The notes under the pieces were generated by a model, which was not told the DNA's origin, ran no database searches, and was given only the letters and a program-made list of their open reading frames with translations. From Demequina phytophila (lineage in GTDB: Bacteria > Actinomycetota > Actinomycetes > Actinomycetales > Demequinaceae), in contig NZ_BBLW01000002.1 of assembly GCF_000971135.1 (NCBI RefSeq), positions 124,001 to 188,000 on the forward strand: DNA of 64,000 nt. Direction: 5' to 3'. Of this stretch, positions 2,054 through 60,584 are shown piece by piece. The stretch's first letter is position 1, and every line of letters starts with the position of its first letter. The position numbers were made by a program, and so were the translations under genes.

Positions 2054-2829
2054 GCCTCGCGGGCCGCCGCCTCCTGGTGCCCGTCACCGCGGAGCGCACC
2101 GCCTTCGCCGAGCAGCTCGCCGCCGAGGGTGCGGACGTGACCGCGGTCGCGTTCATCGCGATCGTGCCGCCCGCGGACCCGGCCGCGCTCGAGGCCGCGA
2201 CGCTCGCGTGGCTCGACGGCGCCTACGACTGGATGGCGGTCACGAGCCGCAACGCGGTGCTCGCGATGGACCGCATCGCCCGCGCGCACGGGCGCACGCT
2301 CGCCGAGCCGCAGCCCGGCGCACGCGTCGCCACGGTGGGCGAGGCGACGCGCGCGGTCTGCGCGGAGGTGGGCCTCACCGTCGACCTGGTGCCCGCCTCC
2401 CGCGCCGACGCTCGCGGCATCGTCGCCGAGCTGCCCGTGGGAACCGGGCGCGTGCTCGCGCCGCTCGGCAACCTCGCGTCACCCGCGCTCGTTCGGGGCC
2501 TCGCGCGCCAGGGCTGGCGGGTCGACGGCGTCGAGGCGTATCGCACCGTCGACGGCCCGGGGATGGACGATGCCACGGTCGCCGCGGCAGCGGACGGTCG
2601 CCTGGACGCGGTCCTCCTGACGTCCGGCTCGGTCGCCGAGCGCTTCGCCGCCGCGTGCCCGTCGGTCGCCCCCGGAACGCGCATCGTCGCCATCGGGCGT
2701 ACCACGGAGGCGGGGGCCCGCGCCGCGGGCCTCGCCGTGGACGCCGTCGCCACCGCGCCCACCTACGCTGGGATCCGGGCCGCGCTCGACGCGGCGCTCG
2801 CCACCCCCACCCAGGGAGACCCGTCATGA
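2050..2829 (+). CDS. hemD: Uroporphyrinogen-III synthase
   Basis: Cyclises hydroxymethylbilane with inversion of ring D to give uroporphyrinogen III, the branch point to heme and siroheme. The 259-residue protein is a normal two-lobed HemD: it opens AGRRLLVPVTAERTAFAEQL and has the AVTSRNAV and LLTSGSVAERF segments of the active-site cleft. HemD sequences are poorly conserved, so position between hemC and hemB is important evidence. It overlaps hemC and hemB by ATGA at each end. A second HemD-like protein at 14549 carries a DNA-binding domain and is a regulator rather than a duplicate enzyme. Confidence 0.92.
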   Translation: MSLAGRRLLVPVTAERTAFAEQLAAEGADVTAVAFIAIVPPADPAALEAATLAWLDGAYDWMAVTSRNAVLAMDRIARAHGRTLAEPQPGARVATVGEATRAVCAEVGLTVDLVPASRADARGIVAELPVGTGRVLAPLGNLASPALVRGLARQGWRVDGVEAYRTVDGPGMDDATVAAAADGRLDAVLLTSGSVAERFAAACPSVAPGTRIVAIGRTTEAGARAAGLAVDAVATAPTYAGIRAALDAALATPTQGDPS

Positions 2830-3800
2830 CCTCGTACCGTCCGCGGCGCCTGCGCGCCACGCCCGCGATGCGCCGCCTCGTGCGCGAGGTGCGACCGCAC
2901 GCGTCCGAGCTGGTGCTGCCGGTCTTCATCCACGAGGACCTCACCGAGCCGCGACCCATCGCGTCGTTGCCGGGTGTGTCCCAGCACCCGCTGAGCGCGG
3001 TGGCGGGTCTGGTCGAGGAGGCGATCGCGGCGGGCCTGGGCGGCCTCATGATCTTCGCGATCCCCTCCGTGCGCGACGCCGTCGGCTCCGGGGCCATCGA
3101 CCCCGAGGGCATCCTCAACCGCGCGATCGCCGCGGCCGCGGGGGCCGCGGGGGACCGGCTGGTCGTCATGGCGGACCTCTGCCTCGACGAGTTCACCGAC
3201 CACGGCCACTGCGGCGTGCTGTCCTCCGACGGCCGCGTCGACAACGACGCCACGCTCGAGGTCTATGCCGCGATGGGCCTCGCGCAGGCCCGCGCCGGCG
3301 CCCACGTGCTCGGCCTCAGCGGCATGATGGACCACCAGGTCGCCGTGGTGCGCGAGGCGCTCGAGGCGGAGGGCTTCACCGACGCCGCGATCCTCGCGTA
3401 CGCCGCCAAGTACGCCTCTGCGTTCTACGGTCCCTTCCGCGAGGCCGTCGACAGCCAGCTCCAGGGCGACCGGCGCACCTACCAGATCGACCCCGCGAAC
3501 GGCCGCCAGGGCCTGCACGAGGCCGAGCTCGACGAGCTCGAGGGCGCGGACATGGTGATGGTGAAGCCGGCGCTGCCGTACCTCGACGTGGTCGCCGAGG
3601 TCGCCGCGCAATCGCGCGTGCCCGTCGCGGCCTATCACGTGTCGGGCGAGTACGCCCAGATCGAGGCGGCCGCCGCGAACGGCTGGCTGGACCGCCGCGC
3701 CTCTCACCTCGAGGCCCTCACGTCGATGCGCCGGGCCGGCGCCGACATCGTCGTCACCTACGCGGCGCTCGAGCTCGCCGCCTGGCTCAAGGAGAACTAA
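2826..3800 (+). CDS. hemB: Delta-aminolevulinic acid dehydratase (porphobilinogen synthase)
   Basis: Condenses two 5-aminolevulinate molecules to porphobilinogen. The 324-residue length is typical. The two active-site lysine regions are visible, AYAAKYASAFYGPF and MVMVKPALPYLDVV (Schiff-base lysine). The metal-site segment reads DLCLDEFTDHGHCG: the middle cysteine of the zinc-type C-x-C pair is aspartate, pointing to a mixed or magnesium-type site (inference). It overlaps hemD by ATGA, and its TAA is immediately followed by the hemL GTG. Confidence 0.98.
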   Translation: MTSYRPRRLRATPAMRRLVREVRPHASELVLPVFIHEDLTEPRPIASLPGVSQHPLSAVAGLVEEAIAAGLGGLMIFAIPSVRDAVGSGAIDPEGILNRAIAAAAGAAGDRLVVMADLCLDEFTDHGHCGVLSSDGRVDNDATLEVYAAMGLAQARAGAHVLGLSGMMDHQVAVVREALEAEGFTDAAILAYAAKYASAFYGPFREAVDSQLQGDRRTYQIDPANGRQGLHEAELDELEGADMVMVKPALPYLDVVAEVAAQSRVPVAAYHVSGEYAQIEAAAANGWLDRRASHLEALTSMRRAGADIVVTYAALELAAWLKEN

Positions 3801-58822: not shown

Positions 58823-59268
58823 TCGAGGTCAACAACGAGACCGACGCGAGCGTCGACGAGGTCGAGTTCGCGGAGCTCGCGCGGTACGTGCTCGCGCAGA
58901 TGCACGTCGCGGACGGCGCGGAGCTCGCGATCATGTTCGTCGACGAGGAGGCGATGGAGCAGCTCCACGTCCAGTGGATGGACGAGCCCGGCCCGACCGA
59001 CGTGCTCAGCTTCCCCATGGACGAACTGCGTCCCGGCACCCCCGACGAGCCCACGCCCGCGGGCCTCCTGGGCGACATCGTGGTGTGCCCGTCCGTCGCG
59101 CAGCGCCAGGCCGCCGCGGCCGGCCACAGCGCGGAGGAGGAGATGCTGCTCCTCACCACGCACGGCATCCTGCACCTGCTCGGCTACGACCATGTGGAGC
59201 CCGAGGAGGAGAAGGAGATGTTCGCGCTGCAGCGCAACCTGCTGCTCACCTTCCTCGCGAGCCGATGA
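58819..59268 (+). CDS. ybeY: Endoribonuclease YbeY
   Basis: 149 residues. Zinc motif [13 protein letters not shown] (HxxxHxxxxxH) and [10 protein letters not shown] are intact. Acts in 16S rRNA 3'-end maturation and ribosome quality control. GTG overlaps phoH; ATG of the next gene overlaps its stop. Confidence 0.97.
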
Positions 59269-60584
59269 GCTCCTCGGCCGTCTCGCTCCTCGTGGCGGTC
59301 GTGGTCGCGGGCCTCGCGGGTGCGGCGGCGCTGCATGCCGTGGTCGCCGCGTTCGAGCAGATCCCCTACGCCGACGAGCGGCGCATGGCGGGGCAGCTGC
59401 GCCCCGACGGGCGTCCCACCCGGGCGGCCCGTCTCGCGGCGCTGCCCGACCACGCCGACAACGCGTCCTCGGTGGCGTACGCGGTGCTCGAGACCGTCGC
59501 CGTGGTCGCGTGGACGGCGCTCGCGCTCGCGCTGGGCGACACGCTCGGTTGGAGCGCGGGCCCCACGCTGATCCTGGCATGGGCCGTCGCCGCGTTCTTG
59601 TCGCTGGTGATCGTGCGCGCCTGGCCGCGCGCCGCCGCACGCCGTTCGCCCGAGGTCGCGATCCGGGCGCTCGCTCCGCTCGCGTGGACGCTCATCCGCG
59701 TCACCACCCCCATCCGTGCCGTGGTGCCCGCGCTGCGGATCCGCGAGCTGTCCGAGCCCGAGGACCTGGTCGAGCAGGCCGGTGAGGCGCTCGAGGAGGA
59801 GGACGCGGAGCTCCTGCGCTCCGTGGTGTCGCTGGGCGAGACGCTCACCCGCGAGGTGATGGTGCCGCGCACCGACATGATCACCATCCAGGCCGGCACG
59901 GCGGCGCGCAAGGCGATGCTGCTGTTCATGCGCTCGGGCTTCTCGCGGGTGCCGGTGATCCGCGGCGAGGTCGACGACACCGTCGGGATCCTCTACCTCA
60001 AGGACGTGGTGCGGGCCACGTGGGACCACCCCGAGCGTCTCGAGGAGGCCATCGACGCGCTCATGCGCGAGCCGGTGTTCGTCCCCGAGTCCGTGCCCGC
60101 CGACGACCTGCTGCGCCGCATGCAGGACGAGGTGTTCCACATGGCGCTGGTGGTCGACGAGTTCGGCGGCGTCGCCGGCGTGGTCACCATCGAGGACGCG
60201 CTCGAGGAGATCGTCGGCGAGGTGGTCGACGAGCACGACCGCAGCGCGCCCGAGGTCGAGGACCTGGGCGACGGCCGGTACCGCGTGCCCGCCCGCTGCG
60301 GCCTCGACGAGCTCGCGGAGCTGTTCGACGTCGAGATCGACGACGAGGACGTCGAGACCGTCGCGGGCCTGCTCGCGAAGGCCCTGGGCAAGGTGCCCAT
60401 CCCCGGATCCCGCGCGACCGCGCACGGGATCGAGCTGCTCGCCGAGCGCGCCGAGGGGCGCAGGCGCACGCTGGTGTCCGTGATCGCGTCGCGCGTCGTG
60501 GAGGACGATGCGCCGGTGCAGACGGGCGAGAACGAGACGGTTCCGCGCAGGCGGGCACGGAAGGACGAGGACGATGACCGATAA
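59265..60584 (+). CDS. CNNM/CorC-type CBS-domain membrane protein
   Basis: 439 residues. N-terminal DUF21-like membrane region with three to four helices, a CBS pair ([37 protein letters not shown] in part; [22 protein letters not shown] in part) and a CorC_HlyC domain near 330-410 ([17 protein letters not shown]). Likely part of magnesium/cobalt efflux or homeostasis; the name hemolysin is historical. Overlaps ybeY and the first 11 nt of era. Confidence 0.93.

What the first reader, a model, noticed from the sequence alone, without database searches (positions are those of the whole stretch)
2565..60511. A 9-mer, GGACGATGC, is strongly over-represented on both strands
I counted 31 copies in 64 kb. 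With base frequencies for about 72% GC, under one would be expected on both strands. About 13 copies read GAC GAT GCN (Asp-Asp-Ala), 8 read GCA TCG TCC (Ala-Ser-Ser), and about 7 lie in the third phase or in another reading, so protein sequence does not explain it. GAT and GCA are otherwise rare codons here. Many copies lie in variable linkers (nirD N-terminus, phoH linker, VanY-type linker), where a DNA motif is easily tolerated, and three are intergenic. Orientation is balanced (15 against 16). Known motifs that behave like this include DNA-uptake signals, recombination (Chi-like) sites, and binding or methylation sites of chromosome proteins. comEA and comEC in the window make an uptake signal worth considering, but a link is only speculation.
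Basis: partly seen in the sequence, partly recalled or inferred. Interest (0 to 1): 0.88.

Follow-up and report, generated by a model that had tools for sequence, protein, structure and literature searches.

The report
Likely DNA-uptake tag in Demequina
A nine-letter DNA word is repeated about 1,500 times in this Gram-positive bacterium and related species use one- or two-letter variants of it, which looks like the 'self' tags that a few Gram-negative bacteria use to choose which DNA to take up; whether it really steers DNA uptake has not been tested.

Summary
The 9-mer is real: 33 copies in the window (about 2 expected), 1,538 in the 2.98-Mb genome, strands equal, reversed control 21. In 464 kb, 180 copies lie in genes against 24.5 after synonymous shuffling; noncoding DNA is 3-fold richer. 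One-base variants are near expectation, and a weaker flank extends the core. Between two species 25 of 29 sites are intact against 10.4 expected locally. Some copies form inverted stem-loop pairs. The organism is a Demequinaceae actinobacterium. Other species of the genus are enriched for GGCCGATGC (up to 2,018 copies) or, less strongly, GGCCGACGC or GCCCGACGC, and dialects largely follow a ComEA/ComEC tree. A second family has CGATGCCGTC. comEA and comEC lie in the window; a type IV pilus operon, found in 43 of 44 genus genomes by PilM, is itself motif-poor (18 against 99.7). Best reading: an uptake signal working like Neisseria DUS or Haemophilus USS, in a Gram-positive phylum. Uptake is untested and the receptor was not found.

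The parts
2565..2573 (+). motif copy GGACGATGC
5130..5138 (-). motif copy
7027..7035 (+). motif copy
9822..9830 (+). motif copy
12953..12961 (-). motif copy
16661..16669 (-). motif copy, -/+ neighbour of 16732
16732..16740 (+). motif copy
17234..17242 (+). motif copy
21351..21359 (-). motif copy, intact in G025
22403..22411 (-). motif copy, intact in G025
24576..24584 (-). motif copy, intact in G025
26411..26419 (-). motif copy, changed in G025
27283..27291 (+). motif copy, intact in G025
28901..28909 (-). motif copy, changed in G025
32199..32207 (-). motif copy, intact in G025
32684..32692 (+). motif copy, intact in G025
32970..32978 (-). motif copy, intact in G025
34746..34754 (+). motif copy, changed in G025
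36744..36752 (-). motif copy, intact in G025
36878..36886 (+). motif copy, intact in G025
39094..39102 (-). motif copy, intact in G025
39566..39574 (-). motif copy, intact in G025
39966..39974 (+). motif copy, intact in G025
43463..43471 (-). motif copy, intact in G025
46053..46061 (+). motif copy, intact in G025
46091..46099 (+). motif copy, intact in G025
51857..51865 (+). motif copy, intact in G025
52574..52582 (-). motif copy, changed in G025
52708..52716 (-). motif copy, intact in G025
56954..56962 (-). motif copy, intact in G025
57087..57095 (+). motif copy, intact in G025
58055..58063 (-). motif copy, intact in G025
60503..60511 (+). motif copy, intact in G025
40882..41643 (+). comEA-like gene (SLBB plus helix-hairpin-helix), candidate uptake machinery
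   Evidence: PF10531, PF12836; ORF
41477..43963 (+). comEC-like gene (Competence domain plus metallo-beta-lactamase fold); start uncertain, this mechanical ORF overlaps comEA
   Evidence: PF03772, PF00753; ORF

Best explanation
GGACGATGC is the 9-bp core of a roughly 17- to 20-bp self-DNA uptake signal. Shown: its abundance, extended consensus, dialects, conservation between two species, inverted pairs, and the presence of comEA, comEC and type IV pilus genes. Inferred: a surface DNA receptor of the uptake machinery prefers double-stranded DNA carrying the tag; a pilus draws it in, ComEA holds it, ComEC passes one strand through the membrane, and recombination replaces the recipient's allele. 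Because tagged fragments enter more often, new tags spread and broken tags are repaired, which keeps about one tag per 2 kb. Each lineage has its own dialect, so DNA exchange would stay mostly among species that share it. The receptor is unknown.
For: One copy per 1.9 kb, strands equal. No strand polarity within contigs: +/- 45/61 on C11 (184 kb of the first 188), 23/25 on C4, 12/8 on C3, 65/64 in the other stretches. In 464 kb, 72 of 253 sites in the 9.1% scored noncoding, and 180 in genes against 24.5 expected; in G006 21 of 97 sites in 8.0%. Core plus flank: G at 13 and at 14 at 81% each; a similar flank in most sets of the other strong words. Sites conserved against G025: 25 of 29 intact, 10.4 expected from local same-phase 9-mers, none of 100,000 resamplings as high. 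Inverted +/- pairs that fold into stem-loops: 12 in 560 kb; of 11 +/- pairs within 80 bp in 464 kb, 8 start 25-27 bp apart. Dialects: 14 of 40 genus genomes counted have 929-1,700 copies of GGACGATGC; 16 of 44 have at least 700 of GGCCGATGC; on a ComEA+ComEC tree they largely form clades. Machinery: comEA and comEC in the window, ComEC in 44 of 44 genus genomes, a pilus operon elsewhere, PilM in 43 of 44. Abundance, dialects following phylogeny, permissive intergenic sites and inverted pairs are described for DUS or USS (passages of PMC3630211, and PMC12616744).
Against: No uptake experiment exists in my sources. The specificity determinant was not found: pilins of the pilus operon, an orphan pilin and ComEA/ComEC residues do not track the dialect. 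PilM occurs in 105 of 297 genomes of the order, 70 of them in families without a raised count, so pilus presence is not specific. The pilus operon is motif-poor (18 against 99.7) and comE loci are mildly poor (39 against 58.1 in 22 genomes), which the model does not predict. Noncoding enrichment was not seen in the small GGCCGATGC samples (G035 1 of 21 sites in 13.2%; six named loci 5 of 34 in 9.2%). The G006 sample (180 kb) has no excess of close pairs (4 against 3.7, one of them +/-). Spacing is not clearly regular: variance/mean 0.59 in 10-kb windows (P 0.013), but spacing CV is not different from random (P 0.16). Intragenic sites are not biased to both gene ends as reported for Pasteurellaceae (37 of 175 against 35). 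The GGCCGACGC word is weak in samples of G001 and G027.
Confidence: 0.75

Rival explanations
1. A Chi-like recombination hotspot: the site is read by a RecBCD, AddAB or AdnAB-type helicase-nuclease, which switches to recombination, and it accumulates because it helps repair.
For: Chi is also a short over-represented word that differs between lineages (PMC8022716, passages). It would explain why pilins do not track the dialect. The repair enzyme of this genome was not examined.
Against: Chi of E. [quoted passage not shown] here strands are balanced within contigs and in genes (85 sense, 90 antisense). Noncoding enrichment, inverted pairs and a degenerate flank are not Chi traits that I know of (recalled). 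The word does not resemble the three Chi sequences visible in the passage. The origin position is unknown, so polarity was tested only as local strand balance.
Confidence: 0.1
2. A binding site of a chromosome-organising, segregation or methylation protein, spread over the genome.
For: Present in each of the 20 sampled stretches (6-18 copies per 20 kb) and conserved between two species.
Against: Known segregation guides are strand-polarised or clustered (recalled). Dialects that switch between sister lineages, and stem-loop pairs, have no clear reason there. Methylation could not be tested.
Confidence: 0.1
3. A mobile or REP-like hairpin element, or a codon or amino-acid effect.
For: Some copies form hairpins.
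Against: Most copies are single (19 close pairs among 253 sites); beyond the core and its short extension the flanks carry little shared sequence; 180 copies in genes against 24.5 after synonymous shuffling, all six phases used.
Confidence: 0.03

Closest known systems
DUS of Neisseriaceae, receptor ComP
   Same: Hundreds to thousands of copies, dialects that follow phylogeny, inverted pairs linked to terminators (PMC3630211 and PMC12616744, passages); type IV pilus genes present here too.
   Different: Unrelated sequence; Gram-positive host; no pilin found that tracks the dialect.
USS of Pasteurellaceae
   Same: 9-nt word with an extended form (eUSS) and dialects; receptor only predicted so far (PMC12616744, passages).
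   Different: Unrelated sequence; no outer membrane here (recalled for Actinomycetota).
Flp/Tad-dependent transformation of Micrococcus luteus
   Same: Actinobacterium with comEA and comEC (PMC6370729, passages); this genome also has further secretion ATPases, two of them Tad-like by my reading.
   Different: The passages seen mention no uptake sequence in M. luteus; this genome has a type IVa-like pilus operon as well.
Chi sites
   Same: Short, over-represented, lineage-specific words.
   Different: E. coli Chi is leading-strand polarised; this motif shows no local strand bias.

Membership tests
DNA uptake signal (DUS/USS class, by behaviour) | Hundreds to thousands of copies, both strands, above codon-aware expectation | tested here: met
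   (codon-aware test on a 464-kb sample)
DNA uptake signal (DUS/USS class, by behaviour) | Permissive location: enriched in noncoding DNA, inverted pairs able to form stem-loops | tested here: met
   Met in this genome, with 12 pairs in 560 kb and no run of T in the 12 bases printed on one side. Not seen in small samples of others: no pair excess in G006, no noncoding enrichment in G035.
DNA uptake signal (DUS/USS class, by behaviour) | Dialects congruent with phylogeny | tested here: met
   largely. Exceptions: G004, and G019 beside the GGCCGACGC group; G007, G018 and G022 mixed. 36 of 44 genomes on the tree; no branch supports printed.
DNA uptake signal (DUS/USS class, by behaviour) | Competence and pilus genes in the genome | tested here: met
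   dprA and comF not looked for
DNA uptake signal (DUS/USS class, by behaviour) | Preferential binding and uptake of tagged DNA | not testable with these tools
   needs transformation assays
Neisserial DUS proper | Sequence with the CTG core shared by all DUS dialects, read by ComP | tested here: not met
   GGACGATGC and its reverse complement contain no CTG (core from PMC3630211, passage); no ComP-like receptor identified
Chi site | Polarised to the leading strand | tested here: not met
   origin position unknown, so the test is local strand balance
Methylation or restriction site | Modified base at the motif | not testable with these tools
   no raw long reads held

The most novel reading that the evidence does not exclude
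An independently evolved self-DNA tagging system in Actinomycetota, with at least three dialects in Demequina and a related word in a second family, read by a receptor that is not one of the pilins of the pilus operon, while the pilus operon itself is kept nearly free of the tag and is swapped between two gene-content types within a dialect.
Probability: 0.4. Interest if true: 0.93.

Novelty: new variant of a known kind. Interest (0 to 1): 0.86.

Why it matters
[quoted passage not shown] A further, independent case in a Gram-positive phylum would separate the tag from the crossing of an outer membrane, give many species with natural dialect changes for finding the receptor, and make testable whether such tags act as barriers to gene flow between species. 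It could also offer a way to bring DNA into cultured Demequina strains.

Tried and rejected
Codon or protein origin: rejected. Short degenerate word: rejected, one-base variants are near expectation. Chi: no local polarity. Pilins of the pilus operon as the dialect-setting receptor: trees of three pilins in each of two operon types mix dialects, as far as 10-11 genomes per tree can show. Orphan pilin: identities do not follow dialect (no tree). ComEA or ComEC as determinant: G004, which differs in dialect from its sisters, shares 1 ComEA and 8 ComEC columns uniquely with the GGACGATGC clade, its four compared relatives 0-11 and 10-29. Bias to both gene ends: not found. Regular spacing: weak. 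PilM presence against motif density in family f20: only suggestive (P 0.052). Rows dropped: named loci L012, L013 and L015, matching G010, G021 and G014, were left out of the tree, and 8 of 44 genomes (G005, G008, G013, G028, G029, G032, G036, G060) were never fetched for it; of 21 fetched pilus operons, G003, G009 and G059 were left out of the depletion count because they have no strong counted dialect; G059, G060, G062 and G063 have no GGACGATGC count.
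Full report
What was checked. The genome (G000, 2,984,965 bases in 12 contigs) holds 772 forward and 766 reverse copies, one per 1.9 kb; the reversed word has 21.

Not codons, not a loose word. 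In the 464-kb sample 180 copies lie in called genes; shuffling synonymous codons within genes gives 24.5 (sd 4.8). Counted by place, 177 are inside genes in all six phases, 4 at gene edges and 72 in the 9.1% scored as noncoding (gene calls are mine, by GC at codon positions, so the share is approximate). The core is 253 against 22.3 expected (order-4 Markov), while the 27 one-base variants have ratios from 0 to 2.1. Around the core there is a weaker extension: G at 10 (70%), G at 13 and at 14 (81% each), then YCG, and mostly G or A just before the core. In G006, 21 of 97 copies lie in 8.0% noncoding; in the small GGCCGATGC samples there is no such enrichment (G035 1 of 21 sites in 13.2%, six named loci 5 of 34 in 9.2%).

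Conservation. A close relative (G025) was aligned over 58.4 kb at 87.9% identity. Of 29 sites in aligned parts, 25 are intact in G025; local same-phase 9-mers predict 10.4, and none of 100,000 resamplings reached 25. In the other direction 25 of 29 are intact as well. The motif is therefore maintained.

Stem-loops. In 464 kb, 19 neighbouring pairs lie within 80 bp, against 9.9 expected; 11 of them are +/- and 8 of these start 25-27 bp apart. The 180-kb sample of G006 has no excess (4 against 3.7, one of them +/-). In 560 kb of G000 there are 12 +/- pairs with starts 20-60 bp apart; all 12 fold into stem-loops (-20.7 to -43.2 kcal/mol); 5 lie between convergent genes, 3 between same-direction genes, none between divergent genes, and 4 inside called genes. 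No run of T follows them in the 12 bases printed on one side. This resembles the terminator-associated pairs of DUS and USS but is less clear; terminator function is an inference.

The organism. LeuS from the window matches Demequina lutea, D. sediminicola, D. flava and D. aestuarii records at 79-82% identity, so the window comes from Demequinaceae (Actinomycetota). Nearer records may have been left out by the tool.

Dialects. In the genus, 13 of 37 genomes have 929-1,700 copies of GGACGATGC and 24 have 49-275; G061 adds one (1,261), G064 and G065 are low. K-mer searches of samples of low-count species pointed to GGCCGATGC and to a GCCGACGC word. GGCCGATGC reaches 2,018 copies (G015), and 16 of 44 genomes have at least 700, with reversed controls of 44-110 in those 16 (34-139 in all 44); in samples G015 has 91 against 12.7 and G014 29 against 4.7. 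GGCCGACGC reaches 741 (G027), 10 of 44 having at least 400 with reversed controls of 54-147, but it is GC-rich and the samples show weak or no excess (in genes G003 23 against 12.5, G001 18 against 13.3; G027 22 in all against 13.0). I count it as a weak dialect. G009 instead has GCCCGACGC with T following (GCCCGACGCT 14 against 0.5 in 40 kb). G at position 14 is 57-87% in 8 of 9 sets with a strong word; in the ninth, a pool of 40 sites from eight GGACGATGC species, position 13 is G in 70% and position 14 is not fixed. On a ComEA+ComEC tree of 36 genomes and two named loci, the GGACGATGC genomes form one clade (with G059, uncounted), G004 excepted; most GGCCGATGC genomes form another, while G021, G062, G035 and G019 sit near the third group, where GGCCGACGC counts are highest and G018 and G007 have middling counts of both (one locus, no branch supports printed). 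G004 (1,550 copies of GGACGATGC) is nested in the third group next to G063. Its six sampled 20-kb stretches, on three contigs, hold 31 copies, fewer than the 55 its genome average predicts. G022 carries both main dialects (26 and 16 against 3.6 and 3.1).

Beyond the genus. In 297 genomes of the order, the highest densities of GGACGATGC outside the genus are in family f20 (up to 399 copies in 2.7 Mb; the next, G260 of another family, has 173 in 3.0 Mb). The f20 word is CGATGCCGTC or longer (GACGGCATCG on one strand: 39 against 1.8 in 174 kb), with 27-785 copies in 18 genomes and reversed controls of 0-11. It shares CGATGC with the Demequina words; whether it is homologous is open. The other genus sampled of the window's own family (G192) shows no clear word in 99 kb, nor do the samples of G001, G018 and G027.

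Machinery. The window has comEA-like and comEC-like genes, and ComEC is found in 44 of 44 genus genomes. Contig C6 has an operon with PilB, PilT, PilC, a major pilin, two minor pilins (N_methyl scores just under the cut-off), a large pilin-like protein, PilD and PilM; the names PilT and of the pilins rest on position and motif, and PilN- and PilO-like proteins are named by position only, with no Pfam hit. PilM is found in 43 of 44 genus genomes; G005, 85% complete, lacks it. Another PilT-like ATPase and two Tad-like ATPases lie elsewhere (labels by my reading), so which pilus would carry DNA is unknown; Micrococcus luteus uses Flp/Tad pili (PMC6370729, passages).

Where is the specificity? The pilus operon has two gene-content types: pilA plus two small minor pilins, or pilA plus a very large pilin and a roughly 220-residue one (21 operons). 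The types are mixed within dialect clades and pilin trees mix dialects. The orphan pilin on C10 and ComEA/ComEC also fail to track dialect. The receptor is unidentified.

An unexpected link. In 18 genomes with a strong dialect, the pilus operon (10.7 kb set by the position of pilM) has 18 own-dialect copies against 99.7 expected; each of the 18 is below its expectation, 8 have none, and G002 and G017 have 4 each. The flanks on the same stretches have 46 against 46.7. None of 46 ten-kb windows of this genome has fewer than 2. The two Tad stretches are not poor (11 and 12 in 18 kb each); comE loci are mildly poor (39 against 58.1 in 22 genomes). The operon has lower GC (0.61-0.68), and the genomes are related, so the 18 are not independent. 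Possible reasons: repeated replacement by divergent DNA, or selection against tags in genes that must stay diverse. I do not know which.

Known work. [quoted passage not shown] PMC3630211 (passages) describes eight DUS dialects following phylogeny, and inverted pairs. PMC5031613 (passages), PMC6370729 (passages), PMC2346458 (abstract and outline) and PMC8022716 (passages) were also consulted. In the listings of my searches of the held open-access library (capped lists, titles and abstract starts only) no entry reports an uptake sequence in Actinomycetota; one search returned no paper. Subscription journals and most preprints are not covered.

Verdict. The best explanation is a self-DNA uptake signal working like DUS or USS, evolved independently, at 0.75; Chi-like and chromosome-protein explanations are at 0.1 each.

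Noticed in passing
L177:6932-18691 (G000 C6) and loci L237-L240, L243-L255: The type IV pilus operon is poor in the own-dialect motif in 18 of 18 genomes counted (18 copies against 99.7 expected), with normal flanks.
   Followed up: partly
L177, L237-L256: The pilus operon comes in two gene-content types that are mixed among close relatives, and PilM identity (37-94%) does not parallel ComEC identity, suggesting exchange of whole operons.
   Followed up: partly
L217-L231 (family f20): A second family of the order is enriched for CGATGCCGTC, up to 785 copies; the three genomes with the lowest counts lack a detected PilM, but so do four others.
   Followed up: partly
L264:1183-1596 (G000 C10): An orphan type IV pilin gene, convergent with a frame that I read as metE (label recalled); relatives with varying identity in many genus genomes.
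   Followed up: partly
G000, 25 sampled stretches including the window: Intragenic copies are commonest in the first fifth of genes (60 of 175 against 35 expected); over-long start calls may explain part of this.
   Followed up: no
L179-L181 (G000 C9, C7, C12): A second PilT-like ATPase gene beside frames that I read as a sigma/anti-sigma pair, and two Tad-like ATPase loci (labels by my reading).
   Followed up: no
window 46124-48127: A PAS-GGDEF-EAL protein in the gap between motif copies at 46091 and 51857.
   Followed up: no
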